Shown here piece after piece: positions 9,820 through 33,168 of a DNA stretch of 46,723 nt. The position numbers and the translations under genes were made by a program. Source of the DNA: an uncultured Aquimarina sp. (GTDB lineage: Bacteria; Bacteroidota; Bacteroidia; Flavobacteriales; Flavobacteriaceae). The notes under the pieces are model-generated. The model did not search any database and had not been told where the DNA came from. It was given only the letters and a program-made list of their open reading frames with translations. The DNA is taken from contig CALFCI010000022.1 in NCBI GenBank assembly GCA_937951135.1, positions 1 through 46,723 of the forward strand. The letters run 5' to 3'. Position 1 is the first letter of the stretch, and every line of letters begins with the position of its first letter.

Positions 9820-10254
9820 ATGTCGTCAATATCAGATTTGTTTGATAGTGGATTTCAAAAACGAAATCAAGGCCATTTTGCAGCCATTGTAAAAGTAGCA
9901 ATGAGTGATTCTGTGATCACCGATGCAGAACAAGATTTTTTAAACCGTTTAGCACGTAGACTTGATATTTCAGATCATGATTACCAAGAAATCGTAAAAA
10001 ATTATAAAAACTACCCTATCAATCCTCCATCTGGATACGATGCTAGATTAGATCGTTTATATGATTTATCTAGAATGGTATATGCTGATGATATCAAAGG
10101 AGAAGATCAGGTTGTATTACTAGAAAAATTAGGTATTGGATTAGGTTTTAAATCTGATAATGTTAAATACGTAATTGATAAGGCACTTCATCTTGCATCT
10201 CAAGGTGTAGACAGAGACGATTTTATAGACGAAATTAAAAACATGAATAGATAG
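9820..10254 (+). CDS. TerB-like (tellurite resistance B fold) protein
   Basis: A 144-aa, all-helical, soluble and acidic protein. The region FAAIVKVAMSDSVITDAEQ and the following helices match the TerB-like family, in which a pair of short helical repeats carries conserved acidic residues (here AMSDSVITDAE) near the start of the domain. TerB proteins bind metal ions and occur in stress and envelope-associated complexes, but stand-alone flavobacterial members have no proven role, and tellurite resistance should not be assumed. It has its own promoter and is monocistronic. Its stop codon lies inside the long hairpin shared with the convergent kinase gene. Confidence 0.7.
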   Translation: MSSISDLFDSGFQKRNQGHFAAIVKVAMSDSVITDAEQDFLNRLARRLDISDHDYQEIVKNYKNYPINPPSGYDARLDRLYDLSRMVYADDIKGEDQVVLLEKLGIGLGFKSDNVKYVIDKALHLASQGVDRDDFIDEIKNMNR

Positions 10255-10283
10255 ATACACAAGATTTTGTGTATCTATCTATT
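10246..10283. terminator. Bidirectional hairpin between convergent genes
   Basis: A perfect 17-bp stem: AATAGATAGATACACAA (10246-10262) pairs with TTGTGTATCTATCTATT (10267-10283) around a 4-nt loop. It covers the stop codons of both the TerB-like gene (10252) and the histidine kinase gene (10281). There is no long T run, so its function as a terminator is inferred from its position. Confidence 0.65.
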
Positions 10284-11811
10284 GTTGATGTTTGGCAATT
10301 TGTTTTGTGATTTTATACAAAAAGTCTTCTTGTTCAAAAGGTTTCGGGATAAAATCATCCATTCCCGATTTCAAACACTTTTCTCGTTCTGACTCTGTTG
10401 CATTTGCTGTAAACCCAATGATTGGAGTTTCACAAATCATAATATCTCCATAATTATTTCGAATCATTTGAGTCACCTTATACCCATCTAGTTCAGGCAC
10501 CTTCAAATCCATTAAAACCAAGTCATAATTACGGCGCTCAATAGCATTAATCGCTTCTTGTCCGTTTACTGCTACATCCACAAAAAAGCGCCCATGCGTA
10601 ATCAATATTTTCATCACGAGGTATTGTGTGCTTTCTTCATCTTCTACCACTAAAACTCTAAATTTCTTTTTTGTGGTAGGCAGGTCGTACTTCTTCTTTT
10701 TTCGTGTTACACTCTTTTTAGTCACTGGAATAAAGAATGGCATTTTTAAATTAAAAGCACTGCCCTCTTCAGGTGTACTCGTTACCTTAATCTCACCTTT
10801 CAACAGGTCTACTAAATTTTTAACAATGGCTAAACCTAAGCCTGTACCTAAAATCTGTTTATCTTGATTAAAACGTGTAAAACGATCAAAGATATGCTCG
10901 AGATCTTCTGTAACGATACCTGTTCCAGTATCTTCAATTTTAAAATTAATACTCGTTTTATTACTTCGCTGATAATTTTTTGTTACGATAAGGCTAATCT
11001 TTCCTTCGGTAGTAAATTTAAAAGCATTATTTAATAAATTATGTAGAATTTGATACATCCGAGTACGGTCTCCTATCAGATATTCAGGAATACTCTCATC
11101 TATATGGGTTTCAAAAACGAGTCCTCTCTTTTCGGATTCTACTGCGTAAGATGCTGCAAAACCATTAATCAAGTCATGAAATAAAAATTCTTCTTGAACA
11201 ATAGTGAGTTGCCCCGCTTCAATTTGAGACATGTCGACCAGATCATTAATGAGCGTATTCAAATGCATACTTTCTCTTTTAATGATCCGACTAAGCTCTG
11301 ATTGTTCAAAATCTAGTTTTGTATTTTCAAGCACTTCTATAAAACCTAAAATACTGGTTAAAGGAGTTCTAATCTCGTGATTAATATTGGCAATAAAACT
11401 ATTTTTAAATTCTTCTTTCTGTAATAAGAATTTATTTTTCAACACTAGTTCTTTTCCCTTTAATATCGATTCATTTCGTTGTTGCGCTATCGCATTAAGC
11501 TCATGATACTTTATTGTATAATCAAAAATAGAAAGTGTAACTTCTATTTTTGAAAATTGAATAGCAATATCACATATCTTTTCGATACCATCATAATCAA
11601 GATGAATACATGGAAAATTTAGGGTTTCATCTACCAATCCATCTTCAATAAATCCGCGTAACATTTCAAAAAACGGATGTGCCTCATAAATAGACGATTC
11701 TTTTTTCCAATCAAAAACAACACCATCAGTTGCTTTGATCGTACCATCCAATGCAATGGTAAGGTGTTGCATTTTTGGATAATACGAAGTGTTTTTTGTT
11801 GTCATTCCCAT
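10279..11811 (-). CDS. Soluble hybrid histidine kinase with receiver domain
   Basis: A 510-aa protein without membrane segments. Residues 1-110 look like a PAS-type sensor fold, followed by a helical linker. The HisKA domain has NHEIRTP with phospho-accepting His145. The ATPase domain follows with its N box (LHNLLNNAFKF), DTGTGI and GTGLGLAIV. The C-terminal receiver domain spans about 385-505, with VVEDEE, phospho-accepting Asp in LMDLK (about 435), FTAN and the Lys of PKPF. All catalytic residues are present. It is the last gene of a four-gene minus-strand run and starts 5 nt after the stop of the GTPase gene, so the two are almost certainly cotranscribed. Lacking a DNA-binding output, it probably signals through phosphotransfer or direct contact with the GTPase module (inference). 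Confidence 0.9.
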   Translation of the reverse strand: MGMTTKNTSYYPKMQHLTIALDGTIKATDGVVFDWKKESSIYEAHPFFEMLRGFIEDGLVDETLNFPCIHLDYDGIEKICDIAIQFSKIEVTLSIFDYTIKYHELNAIAQQRNESILKGKELVLKNKFLLQKEEFKNSFIANINHEIRTPLTSILGFIEVLENTKLDFEQSELSRIIKRESMHLNTLINDLVDMSQIEAGQLTIVQEEFLFHDLINGFAASYAVESEKRGLVFETHIDESIPEYLIGDRTRMYQILHNLLNNAFKFTTEGKISLIVTKNYQRSNKTSINFKIEDTGTGIVTEDLEHIFDRFTRFNQDKQILGTGLGLAIVKNLVDLLKGEIKVTSTPEEGSAFNLKMPFFIPVTKKSVTRKKKKYDLPTTKKKFRVLVVEDEESTQYLVMKILITHGRFFVDVAVNGQEAINAIERRNYDLVLMDLKVPELDGYKVTQMIRNNYGDIMICETPIIGFTANATESEREKCLKSGMDDFIPKPFEQEDFLYKITKQIAKHQQ

Positions 11812-11816
11812 ACCGA

Positions 11817-12308
11817 TTATCTTGTAATTTCAACCCCTAGATCTACAAAGAAATCTTGAACATTTTTATTCGTTTTAGCACTAGTCAAGCAATCTGGAAC
11901 AATGTTAAGCTCCGTTAACCTATTTCGTATGGTCTGCTCCTTCACCAAATCCAATTTATTTCCAATGATCTTAACCATAACTTTAGGATGATTCGCATTT
12001 AGGTATGCAATATCGCTTTCTAAATTTCGATAGGTTTCAGGCCTAGCAACATCAAACACATAGATGAATGCATGTGATCCTAAAAGGTAAGACTTTCGAG
12101 TATCCTCGATTTGTGTATGCCCTTCAGTATCCCATATAATCATTGATAATGTATTCCCTTCAGGAGTTTGAATTTCTTTTTTCTGAATTTGTACACCTAA
12201 TGTTACTTTATAGTCTTCAGAAAAGGCATCGTCTATAAAACGTCTGAATAAGGATGTTTTTCCAACTCCAAAGTGGCCTAAAAGCACTACTTTTTTAGAC
12301 AATTTCAT
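11817..12308 (-). CDS. Ras/Rab/MglA-like small GTPase
   Basis: A 163-aa protein that is one compact Ras-fold GTPase domain. It shows the P-loop GHFGVGKTS (11-19), a switch I Thr near 36, switch II WDTEGH (59-64), NKLD (117-120) for guanine, and TSAK (142-145). In Ras the switch II motif is WDTAGQ, with catalytic Gln61; here that position is His64, so fast hydrolysis probably needs a partner. I place the start at 12308 (MKLSKK), 14 nt inside the previous gene, because 15 more residues from the next upstream ATG (12353) lie within that gene and do not belong to the fold. There is no lipid-modification tail. Bacterial relatives such as MglA work with roadblock-domain partners, and one such candidate is encoded directly upstream. 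Confidence 0.88.
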   Translation of the reverse strand: MKLSKKVVLLGHFGVGKTSLFRRFIDDAFSEDYKVTLGVQIQKKEIQTPEGNTLSMIIWDTEGHTQIEDTRKSYLLGSHAFIYVFDVARPETYRNLESDIAYLNANHPKVMVKIIGNKLDLVKEQTIRNRLTELNIVPDCLTSAKTNKNVQDFFVDLGVEITR

Positions 12309-13119
12309 TTGTAAAATATTTTTTGAGTTTTTGAGTAAAAAGCGCATTATCATCGATATCTTTTTTAGAGATTTGATGTTGCGCGAAATCTAATATTTGA
12401 TTTTCTAATATGTCTTTAACAGTTGTAGTATAAGCTCCAGAGACTACTGCAGCGATATAATACGAATAAAAATTTTGGACATGAATGGTGTAGAGTTCGT
12501 ATTCAATCGACTCTAAATTTTGATCTTTCCCATGAAAAGCATCTTCTACAAAACTTTTAATCGCTGTTAGCATTCCTGCTATCATTTCTTTATCGACAGT
12601 CCCTTCAGATAAAGGGCTGTATTCTGAAATCAGTATTCCAGAATTTTTTTCAATGACAAACAATTGCATTAACCGCGGTGTCGCATAATCAGATAGCGCG
12701 ATATCACCATCACTTACCCCTGTACTTTTTGCTCTTTTTTTACGAAACAAATTTTTAAAAGAAAATGCCTCCTTAGTTTTTTGACTAATCTGATCACTTA
12801 GTAATCGCATTTCATGTGCGATATACTTTTTAATCATCTTTCCTATAATAGGAAACAAAGCCTCCACTACGGCATCTTGTGAATTTTTGATTTCTTCTTT
12901 TAACGTTTGTGTAATGACAGGACCTAAGTCTTGAGGCATATTCTTGATAAACCCTTCTAGTTTATCATCGATAATAGGCCCTACTTTTTGAGATAACTCA
13001 TTTTTTTGATGAAGGATTGCATAAAGCTCTTCTACATCTTTTGTGATGGAAGCTGCAAACTCTTTCTCCTCAGTGAGCAAAAGTTTTTTTAAAATCTGAA
13101 GTTTATCCTCCGCTTCCAT
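12295..13119 (-). CDS. Helical protein with roadblock/MglB-like C-terminal domain
   Basis: A 274-aa soluble protein. Residues 1-125 are helical and amphipathic, with a stretch (about 45-120: VGPIIDD, QDAVVEALFPIIGKMI, then an Arg/Lys-rich end) that recalls, from memory, a conserved region next to OmpA-family genes in cyanobacteria and other phyla. After a basic linker (126-140), residues 148-245 alternate strands and helices like a roadblock/LC7 fold (LMQLFVIEKNSGILISEY, then a long helix, then IEYELYTIHVQNFYSYYIAAVVSG). Roadblock proteins such as MglB regulate small GTPases, and the GTPase gene overlaps its 3' end by 14 nt. The domain call rests on pattern recognition and needs a profile or structure search. 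Confidence 0.55.
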   Translation of the reverse strand: MEAEDKLQILKKLLLTEEKEFAASITKDVEELYAILHQKNELSQKVGPIIDDKLEGFIKNMPQDLGPVITQTLKEEIKNSQDAVVEALFPIIGKMIKKYIAHEMRLLSDQISQKTKEAFSFKNLFRKKRAKSTGVSDGDIALSDYATPRLMQLFVIEKNSGILISEYSPLSEGTVDKEMIAGMLTAIKSFVEDAFHGKDQNLESIEYELYTIHVQNFYSYYIAAVVSGAYTTTVKDILENQILDFAQHQISKKDIDDNALFTQKLKKYFTNEIV

Positions 13120-13137
13120 ATTGATAAAGAACTACAA

Positions 13138-13491
13138 TTACTTTTGAGTGATCTTTTCACCCATAGCAATCAATAAATTACCTAAAGCCTTTTTATCTAC
13201 CTTATTAGTTTCCAAAGTGGCAACTTTATCATCTAACACATCTTCTAATGCTGTAATTCGAATATTGATATCTGTATTCAAATTATCAATAGATTGAAGT
13301 AATTCTTGGCGAGTGCTTTCAATAAACACTTCCAATTCTTTTTTCTGCGCAGTGATTTCTTTTTTTACATTCTCAAACTCAGAATTATATGTCGCAATAT
13401 TCTCTCCAAAGATTAAGTTTTTGATTGCTTCTATTTTTGAAGAAGGGTCGTTATTTTGTACTTCTTCAATAGCTGGGTTTTCTTTAGCCAT
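13138..13491 (-). CDS. Small coiled-coil protein, first gene of the GTPase module
   Basis: A 117-aa, charged protein. The stretch IEAIKNLIFGENI (about 23-35) is followed by a long heptad-patterned helix (about 40-95) and a short hydrophobic end LGNLLIAMGEKI. This order (LxxLLFG-like start, coiled coil, LGxLLxxxG end) resembles small proteins I recall beside OmpA/GTPase genes in other phyla, sometimes misnamed in databases. No enzyme motif, signal peptide or membrane segment is visible. It lies 18 nt upstream of the roadblock-like gene and is probably cotranscribed. It could be an adaptor or oligomerisation partner; function unknown. Confidence 0.6.
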   Translation of the reverse strand: MAKENPAIEEVQNNDPSSKIEAIKNLIFGENIATYNSEFENVKKEITAQKKELEVFIESTRQELLQSIDNLNTDINIRITALEDVLDDKVATLETNKVDKKALGNLLIAMGEKITQK

Positions 13492-14256: not shown

Positions 14257-16074
14257 ATGCCAGTAGTCACATCGAAGCAAGTAGCCAAAGGGCTTCAATT
14301 AGATAAATTAGGTTTTATAGGTACTTTTATAGGTTGGATAATTTTAAAAATCACAAGACTATCGAAGATAAACCGCCAATATGATAGCATCAGTCATTTA
14401 AAAGGTTTAGACTTTTTAAATGCGATATTGTCTATGTATGGTGTTACTTTTGAAATTCCCCCTGAAGATTTAAAACGATTACCTAAAGACGGTGCTTTTA
14501 TAACACTTTCCAATCATCCTTTAGGTGGACTTGATGGCATCTTATTATTAAAACTATTACTAGAAAGCCGTCCTGATTATAAAATCATCGCTAACTTTTT
14601 ATTACATAATTTTTTTCCTTTAAAATCTTTTATTTTACCCGTAAATCCATTTGAAGATCGAAAAGATATTAAATCTAGTACAGAAGGAATCCGAAAATCA
14701 ATTGAACACCTTAAAGCTGGAATGCCTTTAGGTATTTTTCCTGCCGGAGAAGTATCTACACATAAAGAAGGAAAAAAAGTTGTCGATCGCCCTTGGGAAA
14801 TAACAGCTATGCGATTGGTAAAGCACGCTAAAGTACCTGTAATTCCTATTTATTTTCATGCCAAAAACAGCAGGATTTTTTATCAATTAGCTTCCATAAG
14901 CGGTACCTTACGGACTGTAGCATTACCTAGAGAAGTTTTTTCTCAAGACAGCAAAGTGATCAAAGTACGTATCGGTAACCCAATTTCTGTAAAGGATCAA
15001 GAAGAGCATAAAGATATTCATGACTTTACTAGTTTTCTTCGTAAGAAGACCTATATGCTAGCCAATCCGTATGAAAAAAAGACATTACGAGAATCGATTC
15101 CTCAAAATCTAAAACTGGTTTCAAAATCTCCTGAAAAAATCGCACTAGAGCGTAATGCTACCACTATTGAACAAGAGTTGGCGTATTGTAGAACTCATGA
15201 CAAACGATTATTAGTGAGTAAAAATTATGAGGTTTTCTTAGCTAAAAAAGAGTACATCCCTAATATTCTACATGAAATCGGTCGTTTACGAGAGATCACG
15301 TTTAGAGCAATTGGTGAAGGCACAAATCAATCTATAGACTTGGATCCTTTTGACAACTATTACCACCATCTATTTTTATGGGACACCGAAGCTAAAAAAT
15401 TAGCAGGTGCCTATCGTATGGGGATGGGATCTGAGATTTATAAAGATTTTGGTATTAATGGGTTTTATCTACAAGATTTATTTCGTTTTGAACCAGAACT
15501 ACACAGCATGATGGGTCAATCCATTGAAATGGGTAGAGCTTTTATTATCAAAGAGTATCAGCAACGTCCTTTACCCTTGTTTTTATTATGGAAAGGTATC
15601 GTGCATTGCACTCTTCGATTTCCTGAGCATAAATACTTGATAGGCGGTGTAAGTATTAGTAATAAGTTTAGTAATTTCTCGAAATCATTAATGATTGAGT
15701 TTATGAAATCACATTACTATGACCCTTACGTAGCTCAATATGTACGCCCTAAAAAAGAATTTAAAGTAAAGCTAAAAGACGCCGATAAAGATTTTGTTTT
15801 TGATGAAAGCCGAAGCGATTTGAATAAGTTTGACAAGATTATTGACGAAATTGAACCCGGAAGTCTTCGCCTACCAGTGCTGTTAAAAAAGTACATCAAA
15901 CAAAATGCAAAGGTAATCGCGTTTAACGTAGACCCTTTATTTAACAATGCCGTAGATGGCTTAATGTACATTCGCATTGCTGACTTGCCTGAAAGCACCG
16001 TAAAACCTGTTATGGAAGAATTTCAAGCAGAATTGGAACGGAAATATTTTAAGCAACCTACAGACATAGCATAA
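14257..16074 (+). CDS. olsF: Bifunctional ornithine-lipid acyltransferase OlsF-like
   Basis: A 605-aa fusion of two acyltransferases. Residues about 70-280 are a PlsC-type glycerophosphate-acyltransferase-like domain with NHPLGGLDG (86-94; catalytic His87 and Asp93) and the later FPAGEVS block. Residues about 320-520 are a GNAT-related N-acyltransferase domain of the OlsB/hemolysin type (LREITFRAIGEG, LAGAYRMG, MGRAFI). In characterised OlsF enzymes, including one I recall from Flavobacterium johnsoniae, the C-terminal half puts a 3-hydroxy fatty acid on ornithine and the N-terminal half adds the second acyl chain, giving the phosphate-free membrane lipid ornithine lipid. Length and domain order fit. 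It is monocistronic, with no membrane helix strong enough to call. Confidence 0.8.
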   Translation: MPVVTSKQVAKGLQLDKLGFIGTFIGWIILKITRLSKINRQYDSISHLKGLDFLNAILSMYGVTFEIPPEDLKRLPKDGAFITLSNHPLGGLDGILLLKLLLESRPDYKIIANFLLHNFFPLKSFILPVNPFEDRKDIKSSTEGIRKSIEHLKAGMPLGIFPAGEVSTHKEGKKVVDRPWEITAMRLVKHAKVPVIPIYFHAKNSRIFYQLASISGTLRTVALPREVFSQDSKVIKVRIGNPISVKDQEEHKDIHDFTSFLRKKTYMLANPYEKKTLRESIPQNLKLVSKSPEKIALERNATTIEQELAYCRTHDKRLLVSKNYEVFLAKKEYIPNILHEIGRLREITFRAIGEGTNQSIDLDPFDNYYHHLFLWDTEAKKLAGAYRMGMGSEIYKDFGINGFYLQDLFRFEPELHSMMGQSIEMGRAFIIKEYQQRPLPLFLLWKGIVHCTLRFPEHKYLIGGVSISNKFSNFSKSLMIEFMKSHYYDPYVAQYVRPKKEFKVKLKDADKDFVFDESRSDLNKFDKIIDEIEPGSLRLPVLLKKYIKQNAKVIAFNVDPLFNNAVDGLMYIRIADLPESTVKPVMEEFQAELERKYFKQPTDIA

Positions 16075-30291: not shown

Positions 30292-33168
30292 TTATTCTAC
30301 TACAAAATGTTTGGTAATCCGTTCCGCTTGTTCCCCTATGACCAACATATATGCTCCAGGAATCAATCCAGAAATATCAATACTGAATGCAGAAGCTCCT
30401 ATACCTTGTATGGTATTATCATAGTGCACATTACCACTCATATCTACAATATGAACTCCCACAGTCTTAGAAATAAGATCTATATCCTCTCCGTTTAAAT
30501 CCACATTTAAAACTGTACTAGCGGGATTTGGATATAGTATCGGATTAGTATCTTCTTCTAGTATATTTGTATCTTCTACTACCGAATTATATGGCACTTC
30601 GGGCAAGTGCCAAAATGCACTTACGAAACCGTTTTTAATATTTTTACTTGCATCGTTATAGAGCACATATTCAGCATCAGTACTCTCTGGAGTGCCTGAT
30701 GGAAACCCATCTACTTTAATCGTATATTGAGGCCCTTTGATACTAAATGCCCTTGCAGAAGTAATTTTAATATTAACACTATTATTTACATCAACCAAAG
30801 CACCTACAATACTCCCTTGTTCCATAGTTTCAATTCGACCTGAGGTATTATGCACTGCTACTGTATTAGAATTAGTAATTCTTAATGGTGTTGATATTCC
30901 TTCTTCACTTCCTGTTCCTCCTCCTGTTTCAGTCTTAAATAGATAGATACTAACATTATTAGAATTTCGTATTTCTGACTGTGCCGATGCAGGAGAACTC
31001 GTACCATATCTTTCGAAATTCATACTATACAAATTCAGATTACTAGCGCCATCTGCAATAAAAGCACGAAAATTATTCTTTTTCGTTAGAAACCTTAATT
31101 GTGTATGGGTGCCATGCACACCATACCATTTTCCTCCTCCTCCAGAGCCTACTCTTACAAAATACTTCTTAAATCGATCTATATGAGTAGCCTTATCCCA
31201 TAGACTATAATCTCCAAAAACTACGTTTGCTACTACAGAACCCTCCCCTTGTTTCCAAAAAAGAAAAGACATATCATTATTATATGTACTCGGGTCATTA
31301 AGTTGGTAATCTGATTTTTGATCTTGCAAAAACACATCAGCTAGTAACGCCTTACCATCAAGCAAAGCCTCTGTGGTAACTAGAGGCGCAGTATACCCTT
31401 TAGTATGCATTTCAGGTTTTGCCCTAATAACACTATTCACTTTACTGGTTCCTAATAGTTTACTTTCTGCTCTAAGAATTAAAGAGTTATCCATGTAATA
31501 TACCCCACGCGGAATAAACACACGTTCTTTTCCTTGATATTGAACTTGATCGGATTCGTTATGAATATTATTCAATACTGTTTGCACATAAGAATGGTCA
31601 GGGTTCTTATCTATCCCCAATGCGGGGTCTAACATAAACACATCATCTGCTAATAATTCAGTATATGCTTTTGTATTCACTTCATTTGTAGAAATAATTG
31701 CTTTAAAAGGGAGTTTTAAGTCTTTTTTAATCGGATTTACATGTTTATTAATGACTTCCCACGGTGCTGAGGGTGGGTTCATTATAGGATTATAAGGAAT
31801 TGTTACATCTTCAGGGCTTTTTTTAGGATCTTTGGATGAATCCCATATCACAAATTGATCATTATTATTTGCCTTGTGATGTGCAAATGCTCCTATAGCA
31901 TAAGGAGATTCATTGGACTCTTTGTCAAGGAAAACCTTTTTATTTCCATTAGTACCTCTTACAATAGCAGTAACTTTTCCTCGAATATGTACATTTTCTA
32001 AATATATATTATTGGATTTATGAATCCAAAATAATGCATCGGCAGGATCATCACCCCCTTCTATATCAATAAGTGCATCAACAATACTAATTCCTTTTTG
32101 ATCTACAAACCCTTCATCTCTACCATAAAGTGTATGATCTGGATTATTACGATCATCAAAAATACGAGGAGTATCTTTTTTGATATACAAACCGATTAAG
32201 GCATGCCCTTTATATGTAGGCCCTGAAAAAACAGCATCTGTTTGATCGATAAAACGCATTCCTACCATAAGCATTTCTTGTGTAATTCTAGGATCCATAC
32301 TTACAAAGCCATGCTTTCCTCCTTCTACAGTACAATTAAAATAGCCCCCTCCAGAACCTAAACCCCCTGTTAAACCGGCATAAGCACCCTCTGCTTTAAT
32401 TAAACAATTTTCCATACTACACCCTTGAGCTCCAGCAAAACGCACACCTACTGCGCTAGAATGATTTCTTACATCAAAAACAACATCTCTTATTACCATG
32501 TTAAAATTAGAAGAAGACGATTCTACATTAATATTTTTCCTCCATGTTTCACTAGAGATTGTACATCCAGAAGCATCATTACACAAACCCATCGAGTTAT
32601 TAGTAGCACTAACTAACTCTGCATAGGCTTGTAATAATGGTGCCATATCCTTATGCTTTGGATCATTTTTATGAAATTTTCCTTCAGTAGAGGCTAATTT
32701 CAATACAGCCCGTTGGTTTCCGTTACGCCCCCCTACAATTTGGATAGAATGTGCTCGGTCATTTCTATACTGCCCAGGTTTATTATTAGGATTTTTAAAG
32801 GATTGTAAACTTGCACTTATTGTTCTAGAAATTTTGTACGTCCCAGCAGGAATATATACTACATAATTCCAATCTCGAGCAAAACGTATCGCATCTTCTA
32901 TAGCGTTGGCATTTGCGTTGGCATTACCACCAGAACTAGCCCCAAAAAGTGTCACTGGTAAATATCCTATCCTAAGTAGCCCATTAGCATCCCAATTTTC
33001 TTGTAATTTATTTTGAATTTGATTATTTGGTATAAACACTTCATAGTTTTGCAAGTGTTTCGGCAATTGAGGATGTTGATATAACGAACCTGTAGGTATC
33101 GTTTGTGCTCTTCCTGAAAGAATACTAACCAGAAAAGCTACCACTAAAAATAAATTATGCTGTTTCAT
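30292..33168 (-). CDS. T9SS-secreted protein with two pectate-lyase-type beta-helices
   Basis: A 958-aa exported protein. The signal peptide (LFLVVAFLVSILSGRAQ) is followed by a first beta-helix domain (about 65-450, starting GASSGG and AIRFARDWNYVVYIPAGTY) and a second (about 500-860, with RVFIPRGVYYMDNSLILRAE). Both starts look like the pectate-lyase-3 fold entry, in which a beta-helix follows a PAGTY strand. The tandem arrangement resembles GH55-type exo-beta-1,3-glucanases, though I cannot confirm an active site. The last 80 residues are a type A T9SS sorting domain: LYPNPASTVLNVDL, VDMSGNV, ISGLIPGAYMLVI and the basic end ITKHFVVE. It is therefore expected at the cell surface or in the medium, probably acting on a glycan. 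Confidence 0.82.
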   Translation of the reverse strand: MKQHNLFLVVAFLVSILSGRAQTIPTGSLYQHPQLPKHLQNYEVFIPNNQIQNKLQENWDANGLLRIGYLPVTLFGASSGGNANANANAIEDAIRFARDWNYVVYIPAGTYKISRTISASLQSFKNPNNKPGQYRNDRAHSIQIVGGRNGNQRAVLKLASTEGKFHKNDPKHKDMAPLLQAYAELVSATNNSMGLCNDASGCTISSETWRKNINVESSSSNFNMVIRDVVFDVRNHSSAVGVRFAGAQGCSMENCLIKAEGAYAGLTGGLGSGGGYFNCTVEGGKHGFVSMDPRITQEMLMVGMRFIDQTDAVFSGPTYKGHALIGLYIKKDTPRIFDDRNNPDHTLYGRDEGFVDQKGISIVDALIDIEGGDDPADALFWIHKSNNIYLENVHIRGKVTAIVRGTNGNKKVFLDKESNESPYAIGAFAHHKANNNDQFVIWDSSKDPKKSPEDVTIPYNPIMNPPSAPWEVINKHVNPIKKDLKLPFKAIISTNEVNTKAYTELLADDVFMLDPALGIDKNPDHSYVQTVLNNIHNESDQVQYQGKERVFIPRGVYYMDNSLILRAESKLLGTSKVNSVIRAKPEMHTKGYTAPLVTTEALLDGKALLADVFLQDQKSDYQLNDPSTYNNDMSFLFWKQGEGSVVANVVFGDYSLWDKATHIDRFKKYFVRVGSGGGGKWYGVHGTHTQLRFLTKKNNFRAFIADGASNLNLYSMNFERYGTSSPASAQSEIRNSNNVSIYLFKTETGGGTGSEEGISTPLRITNSNTVAVHNTSGRIETMEQGSIVGALVDVNNSVNIKITSARAFSIKGPQYTIKVDGFPSGTPESTDAEYVLYNDASKNIKNGFVSAFWHLPEVPYNSVVEDTNILEEDTNPILYPNPASTVLNVDLNGEDIDLISKTVGVHIVDMSGNVHYDNTIQGIGASAFSIDISGLIPGAYMLVIGEQAERITKHFVVE

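What the first reader, a model, noticed from the sequence alone, without database searches (positions are those of the whole stretch)
10279..13491. Four-gene module: coiled-coil protein, roadblock-like protein, Ras-like GTPase and hybrid histidine kinase
Seen: four minus-strand genes with gaps of 18 nt, a 14-nt overlap and 5 nt. The GTPase has P-loop, NKLD and SAK motifs but WDTEGH with His in place of the catalytic Gln. The gene before it ends in what looks like a roadblock/LC7 fold. The last gene is a soluble hybrid kinase with a receiver domain and no DNA-binding output. Established: MglA-type bacterial GTPases are controlled by roadblock proteins such as MglB. Inference: this is a GTPase switch tied to two-component signalling, possibly controlling polarity, gliding or envelope processes; I know no characterised example with this order. 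It is the best candidate in the window for an undescribed system.
Basis: partly seen in the sequence, partly recalled or inferred. Interest (0 to 1): 0.78.

Follow-up and report, generated by a model that had tools for sequence, protein, structure and literature searches.

The report
Bacterial Rab-like GTPase and longin operon
This marine bacterium carries a four-gene signalling operon in which a small GTPase resembling those that direct membrane traffic in our own cells is encoded beside a partner predicted to have the longin fold and beside a sensor kinase; the gene set was predicted in 2014 but has no known function, and the predicted partner fold offers a testable idea of how it works.

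Summary
The four genes are real, exactly placed and conserved: CC, RBL, GTPase and kinase occur in that order in 59 of 60 related loci, the 60th being cut by its contig end. The MglA filing is wrong: the GTPase has a Rab/Ras-type DxxG motif without the catalytic Gln and separates from nine roadblock-coupled MglA proteins. The gene set matches the 'Group 1 Rup' system predicted in 2014 (PMC4316618). It recurs in other Bacteroidota, Nostoc and rhizobia, where RBL carries an OmpA domain and the output is a kinase, a sigma-54 activator or a cyclase. One Gln before the output domain is the only column identical in 22 of 22 aligned outputs. New here: the 'unknown' domain models as a longin/roadblock-superfamily fold; the 50 best structural matches shown are all longin-type, though the central helix of the model is of low confidence and sequence alone does not show it. 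The kinase N-domain models as PAS. In Flavobacteriales the OmpA part of RBL is missing. Complex formation and GEF or GAP activity are inferred, not shown.

The parts
13138..13491 (-). CC: 117-aa small protein, first gene; conserved N-terminal motif KIEAIKNLIFGEN, then probably coiled coil
   Evidence: ORF; homologue in 60 of 60 loci and 12 of 13 distant loci; the coiled coil itself was not predicted with a tool
12295..13119 (-). RBL: 274-aa protein, helical N-terminal part plus C-terminal longin-fold domain; ends where relatives go on to OmpA
   Evidence: long relatives are 589-1021 aa, OmpA in 8 of 8 scanned
12298..12675 (-). predicted longin/roadblock-superfamily domain (RBL residues 149-274): beta-beta-alpha-beta-beta-beta-alpha-alpha
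11817..12308 (-). Rup-type Rab-like small GTPase, 163 aa; G1 GHFGVGKT, G3 WDTEGH, G4 GNKLD, G5 TSAK
10279..11811 (-). hybrid histidine kinase: PAS-fold N-domain, helix, HisKA, HATPase_c, receiver
11518..11775 (-). PAS-fold N-domain (kinase residues 13-98), proposed GTPase-responsive input
11482..11484 (-). codon of invariant Gln110 at the start of the helix after the PAS core (IAQQRNES)
   Evidence: 64 of 64 kinases; only identical column in 22 of 22 aligned outputs
10312..10656 (-). receiver domain (residues 386-500); phospho-Asp present here, lost in 6 of 64 kinases
10246..10283 (.). 17-pair hairpin with T-rich tails on both strands, between the kinase and the convergent TerB-like gene: probable shared terminator
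   Evidence: 5 terminator-like sites in the region, two of them this hairpin read on each strand; shuffles 1.6, sd 1.2

Best explanation
The operon is a Flavobacteriales version, without OmpA anchor, of the Group 1 Rup signalling system. RBL, with CC as scaffold, offers a longin-fold platform that binds the Rab-like GTPase and sets its nucleotide state, most likely as a GEF. The GTP-bound GTPase then binds the PAS domain and helix that begin the hybrid kinase and switches its autophosphorylation. The GTPase lacks its own catalytic Gln, so hydrolysis probably needs help in trans; the invariant Gln at the start of the kinase's helix is the candidate (an idea of the 2014 authors), which would make effector binding also end the signal. 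In other bacteria the same platform is joined to a peptidoglycan-binding OmpA domain, so the original input is probably the state of the cell envelope; in Aquimarina that anchor is lost and the input is unknown. Shown: gene order, conservation, domain content, GTPase class, invariant Gln. Predicted by model: longin fold, PAS fold. Inferred: complex formation, GEF role, Gln in trans, effect on the kinase.
For: Order and overlap conserved. Gene set, missing G3 Gln and output Gln match the published description. Same module on Nostoc and rhizobial plasmids. Longin-type fold, with Rab-GEF subunits among the matches: Mon1-Ccz1, TRAPP, Fuzzy-Inturned, BLOC-3 (their GEF role is recalled). PAS fold of the input domain. 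In L111, L113 and L114 a second GTPase gene comes with a stand-alone 200- or 201-aa copy of the kinase's N-domain without kinase parts (no Pfam match for the L113 copy), which argues that this domain, not the kinase core, is the GTPase partner. One front end serves kinases, sigma-54 activators and a cyclase.
Against: No biochemistry. Sequence evidence for the longin assignment is weak: one of 15 distant members hits Fuz_longin_1 at E 0.019, and unrelated families score better (KfrA_N 0.0016, Peptidase_M16_C 0.0057); a profile comparison with bacterial roadblocks gave E 0.011, probability 3.9%, another nothing. The RBL model has mean pLDDT 55.5 and pTM 0.42, and its central helix 42-59. In 4 of 10 distant loci the GTPase lies on the strand opposite to RBL, so co-transcription is not universal. 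Three of 76 GTPases (L108, L110, L116) have their own G3 Gln and their kinases keep Gln110, so Gln110 may be a binding or signalling residue. The receiver Asp is lost in 6 of 64 kinases.
Confidence: 0.58

Rival explanations
1. MglA/MglB-type polarity or motility switch.
For: A protein of the roadblock/longin superfamily is predicted next to a small GTPase.
Against: G3 motif, G1-G2 spacing and tree place the GTPase outside MglA; no Robl_LC7 match in the own genome, 78% complete; the 60 PDB matches shown of 815 are all Rab-family.
Confidence: 0.05
2. The longin-fold domain is only a structural or adaptor scaffold (as in AP-complex subunits or SNAREs) and does not act on the GTPase; the kinase PAS domain alone reads the GTPase.
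Against: RBL and GTPase frames overlap in 57 of 59 loci as measured, and in the other two through the first GTPase copy; CC, RBL and GTPase stay together whatever the output, save in one genus where the GTPase is elsewhere.
Confidence: 0.25
3. An actinobacterial conservon (AGPS) variant.
For: Same logic: histidine kinase, roadblock-like protein, fourth protein, small GTPase (abstract of PMC13343842; passages of PMC4316618).
Against: GTPase not MglA-type; no roadblock and no DUF742 among the Pfam matches to E 1 of the four proteins; the 2014 authors call the Rup system analogous to the conservon.
Confidence: 0.05
4. Gln110 is a binding or packing residue of the PAS-to-helix junction; RBL, not the kinase, is the GAP.
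For: Gln110 is kept in the three loci whose GTPase has its own Gln.
Against: It is the only column identical in all 22 outputs of three classes; no Arg or Gln is invariant or nearly so in the longin domain.
Confidence: 0.3

Closest known systems
Group 1 Rup GTPase neighbourhood (Wuichet and Sogaard-Andersen 2014, PMC4316618; part 2 of 8 of the text and passages read)
   Same: Rup GTPase without G3 Gln, small coiled-coil gene, unknown-domain gene, output module with invariant N-terminal Gln; Bacteroidetes listed among members.
   Different: Here RBL has no OmpA part; three relatives have a second GTPase and a stand-alone PAS protein; sigma-54 activator and cyclase outputs are not among the two typical outputs named there (GGDEF/EAL fusion, histidine kinase); the unknown domain gets a longin fold, which the passages read do not state.
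MglA/MglB of Myxococcus
   Same: Small GTPase plus a partner of the roadblock/longin superfamily.
   Different: Different GTPase clade and G3 motif; partner nearer to longins; output is a hybrid kinase in the same operon.
Actinobacterial conservon / AGPS (PMC13343842, abstract and outline read)
   Same: Four-gene logic of kinase, roadblock, fourth protein, GTPase.
   Different: MglB-type roadblock, DUF protein and MglA-clade GTPase there (the last from PMC4316618); none of these found here.
Mon1-Ccz1, TRAPP, Fuzzy-Inturned (eukaryotic longin Rab GEFs)
   Same: Longin fold beside a Rab-like GTPase; Foldseek best match 5ldd.
   Different: Eukaryotic multi-longin complexes; no significant sequence similarity; GEF activity here untested.

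Membership tests
Group 1 Rup system | single-domain small GTPase with DxxG G3 lacking the Gln | tested here: met
   163 aa, WDTEGH; 73 of 76 aligned GTPases lack the Gln, 3 have it
Group 1 Rup system | neighbouring small coiled-coil protein | tested here: met
   CC homologue in 60 of 60 loci, 12 of 13 distant loci, Nostoc and rhizobia; coiled coil itself not predicted by a tool
Group 1 Rup system | protein with the unknown domain, often followed by a membrane helix and OmpA | tested here: met
   RBL profiles find 589-1021-aa homologues; OmpA in 8 of 8 scanned, 7 over the cut-off. In the window the domain is present, the OmpA part absent, which 'often' allows. Membrane helix not tested. That this is the same unknown domain is inferred from gene context; the published accessions were not obtained
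Group 1 Rup system | output module (HK or GGDEF/EAL) with invariant Gln in its N-terminal region | tested here: met
   hybrid HK; Gln110 in 64 of 64 HKs, only identical column of 22 outputs
Group 1 Rup system | clusters with the published Group 1 sequences | tested here: inconclusive
   Nostoc and Mesorhizobium relatives lie on the non-MglA side with the window GTPase, but published accessions were not obtained
Group 1 Rup system | not coupled to an MglB (Robl_LC7) homologue by sequence | tested here: met
   0 Robl_LC7 matches in the own genome, 78% complete
MglA family | G3 motif TVPGQ or GTPGQ | tested here: not met
   WDTEGH; 9 of 9 extracted roadblock-coupled MglA proteins have TVPGQ or GTPGQ
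MglA family | insertion between G1 and G2 | tested here: not met
   alignments
Conservon / AGPS | MglA-clade GTPase, Robl_LC7 protein and a DUF protein (DUF742 recalled) | tested here: not met
longin domain | longin fold, second C-terminal helix in place of the N-terminal helix | tested here: inconclusive
   two helices follow the last strand and all 50 VIA rows shown are longin-type (rule), but a helix 137-145 precedes the first strand, the central helix has pLDDT 42-59, and coordinates could not be inspected
roadblock domain | roadblock fold and sequence | tested here: inconclusive
   roadblocks in the Foldseek list at E 3e-3 to 9e-3, none in the 50 VIA rows shown; no Pfam Robl_LC7 match
longin domain | significant match to a longin sequence family | tested here: not met
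   best sub-threshold, E 0.019, 1 of 22 and 1 of 15 members
longin Rab GEF | accelerates nucleotide exchange of the partner GTPase | not testable with these tools
   needs purified proteins
PAS domain (kinase N-domain) | PAS fold | tested here: met
PAS domain (kinase N-domain) | match to a Pfam PAS model | tested here: not met
   no PAS family among the Pfam matches to E 1

The most novel reading that the evidence does not exclude
Bacteria possess a longin-domain regulator encoded with a Rab-like GTPase: the Group 1 Rup system is a bacterial, often envelope-linked counterpart of Mon1-Ccz1/TRAPP-type Rab GEFs, wired directly to histidine kinases, sigma-54 activators and cyclases. The longin-Rab partnership would then be older than, or have arisen outside, the Asgard-eukaryote line in which longins are thought to have differentiated.
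Probability: 0.3. Interest if true: 0.88.

Novelty: new variant of a known kind. Interest (0 to 1): 0.62.

Why it matters
The Group 1 Rup system has been known from genomes since 2014, when its authors wrote that no Rup member had been characterised (passage). A search by the Rup names gave 17 papers (16 listed); by titles and counts only PMC4316618 treats the bacterial family at length, and PMC4915359 holds the words once (not read). A longin-type fold for the unknown domain would turn a gene list into a testable switch: GEF or GAP assay, PAS-helix effector, Gln in trans. It would also bear on where the longin-Rab partnership came from: a 2024 paper thinks it likely that roadblock, longin and profilin folds differentiated in ancestors of Asgard archaea (PMC10933270, section 11 read). 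In the library searched, no paper holds 'bacterial longin', 'prokaryotic longin' or 'longin domain(s) in bacteria'; 15 hold 'longin-like domain', of which I saw passages of one (PMC3521125).

Tried and rejected
Viral contigs hold no relative of the RBL domain by the one pattern tried. PDB sequence searches with RBL and with the domain profile A6 found nothing significant. NCBIfam gave no specific name to CC, RBL or GTPase; its HrpE/YscL match to RBL (E 1.7e-4, 21 bits against a cut-off of 220) was set aside. Pfam Gasdermin_C (CC) and FlgN (RBL) lie under their cut-offs and were not followed. Coiled-coil and membrane-helix predictors were not at hand. RBL profile against bacterial roadblocks: A1 nothing useful, A6 weak, E 0.011, probability 3.9%. 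Literature searches by other words gave nothing on the Rup system beyond PMC4316618 in their listings (most papers not opened). Roadblock entries (LAMTOR, Asgard, dynein LC7) appear in the Foldseek list at E 3e-3 to 9e-3 but not among the 50 VIA rows shown, which does not exclude them. The kinase N-domain profile A3 found 2 clear relatives among 296 phylum genomes, own included, plus one marginal match, so it diverges fast.

Rows dropped: 4 of 13 candidate MglA loci (L175, L176, L181, L182) gave no sequence to my extraction and were left out, and 22 of the 76 GTPases were used. In one search the outputs of L142 and L146 were printed but not aligned. In one search L120 (cut contig) was left out of the GTPase set, and L111, L113, L114 stand with one GTPase copy each. 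L092 has a broken or shortened RBL frame. After the one check asked for, I mended the statement of model confidence (central helix) and lowered two odds for it: best explanation 0.60 to 0.58, novel case 0.33 to 0.30; I moved the longin fold rule from met to inconclusive.
Full report
OBSERVATION. Four minus-strand genes lie at 13138-13491 (CC), 12295-13119 (RBL), 11817-12308 (GTPase) and 10279-11811 (hybrid histidine kinase). The longest GTPase ORF starts further up, but 28 of 37 match rows have an in-frame TAA there, so the 163-aa start is likelier. Pfam gives Ras for the GTPase and HisKA, HATPase_c and Response_reg for the kinase; CC and RBL have no match above cut-off. A 17-pair hairpin with T-rich tails on both strands lies at 10246-10283, between the kinase and a convergent TerB-like gene. 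The host is taken to be Aquimarina, because the named relatives are.

CONSERVATION. The genome scan with the GTPase gave 60 loci, most of them Aquimarina, with Algibacter, Aureisphaera and other Flavobacteriaceae. All 60 have CC, RBL and GTPase in order; 59 also have the kinase and the 60th ends inside the GTPase. RBL and GTPase frames overlap by 14 nt in 50 of 59 loci, by 10 nt in 1 and 17 nt in 6; in the remaining two, L113 and L114, the GTPase measured is a second copy and the first copy overlaps RBL. Of 56 genomes searched, 35 carry the GTPase and 35 the RBL: 33 of 33 of the genus and 2 of 23 others. Across the phylum 13 of 296 genomes, own included, carry an RBL. So the module is universal in the Aquimarina genomes searched and patchy elsewhere.

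WHAT IT IS. In 13 distant loci (L134-L146) a CC homologue lies beside RBL in 12, and a GTPase is within the fetched stretch in 10: on the same strand as RBL in 6 (L134-L137, L143, L146), on the other strand in 4 (L140, L141, L142, L145). The three without it belong to one genus and have a GTPase on another contig (3 of 3). L147 and L148, from another family of the order, keep the four genes in order with a short RBL of 275 and 268 aa. The RBL frames of L135-L146 are 589-636 aa; OmpA was found in 8 of 8 long ones scanned (six Bacteroidota, Mesorhizobium, Nostoc), one of them (L145) just under the cut-off. Four of 72,556 plasmid records carry a relative: Mesorhizobium, two Rhizobium, Nostoc. The Mesorhizobium record reads hypothetical protein, OmpA family protein, Rab family GTPase, adenylate/guanylate cyclase. 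Outputs scanned: histidine kinases (L140, L141, L143, L145, hybrid L147 and L170), sigma-54 activators (L135, L137), cyclase (L169). This matches the Group 1 Rup neighbourhood of Wuichet and Sogaard-Andersen 2014 (PMC4316618; part 2 of the text and passages read): coiled-coil gene, unknown-domain gene often with a membrane helix and OmpA, Rup GTPase lacking the G3 Gln, and an output with an invariant Gln in its N-terminal region.

GTPase CLASS. G3 lacks Gln in 73 of 76 GTPases; three (L108, and L110 and L116 from Algibacter) read WDLEGQ. In a tree of 22 of these GTPases and 9 roadblock-coupled MglA proteins the MglA proteins form one clade with support 0.995, and only they have TVPGQ or GTPGQ (coupling). 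The 60 PDB sequence matches shown, of 815, are all Rab-family. The MglA reading is rejected.

KINASE INPUT. The first 135 residues model at mean pLDDT 79.9 as PAS core plus a long helix; the helix around Gln110 is at 65. Gln15, Cys68, Asp81 and Gln110 are invariant in 64 of 64 kinases, and so is the phospho-His; the receiver phospho-Asp is missing in 6. Gln110 is the only column identical in all 22 outputs aligned, across kinases, sigma-54 activators and cyclases from three phyla. In L111, L113 and L114 (Aureisphaera galaxeae) the operon reads CC, RBL, GTPase 1, a 200- or 201-aa protein made of this N-domain without kinase parts, GTPase 2, kinase. The simplest reading is that this PAS-helix unit is the piece that reads the GTPase. 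CC and RBL also share a short N-terminal motif (profile comparison E 3.7e-4, probability 36.6%, 26 columns), perhaps a common docking helix.

MECHANISM. Longin platform sets the GTPase; GTPase-GTP acts on the PAS-helix of the output; the output Gln may complete hydrolysis, as the 2014 authors suggested. The three GTPases that have their own Gln beside kinases that keep Gln110 speak against a purely catalytic role. Activity, direction and input are untested.

NOVELTY. The kind of system is known from genomes; no experimental study of it was found in the searches made. New here are the longin-type fold predicted for its unknown domain, the OmpA-less Flavobacteriales form, the stand-alone PAS protein with second GTPase, and sigma-54 activator and cyclase outputs.

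Noticed in passing
L111:8004-9655, L113:6840-8486, L114:6840-8486: Second Rup GTPase plus a stand-alone PAS-helix protein (200-201 aa) inside the operon.
   Followed up: partly
L108, L110, L116: GTPase has WDLEGQ (own Gln) and the partner kinase's receiver has lost its phospho-Asp in the same three loci.
   Followed up: no
L150:5218-6282: 354-aa protein with an effector-associated domain (EAD11) fused to a Ras-like GTPase in a same-genus genome.
   Followed up: no
window 13138-13491 and 12295-13119: CC and RBL share a short N-terminal helix-like motif around (I/L)(R/K)xLLxGxE.
   Followed up: partly
window 14257-16074: 605-aa fusion of an acyltransferase (PF19576) and a GNAT domain (PF13444), possibly a bifunctional acyl-lipid synthase; a homologue lies near the operon in most of the 60 loci.
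   Followed up: no
window 9820-10254: TerB-like gene convergent to the kinase, conserved beside the operon in most of the 60 loci.
   Followed up: no
window 30292-33168: 958-aa pectate-lyase-like protein with a Por secretion-system sorting tail.
   Followed up: no
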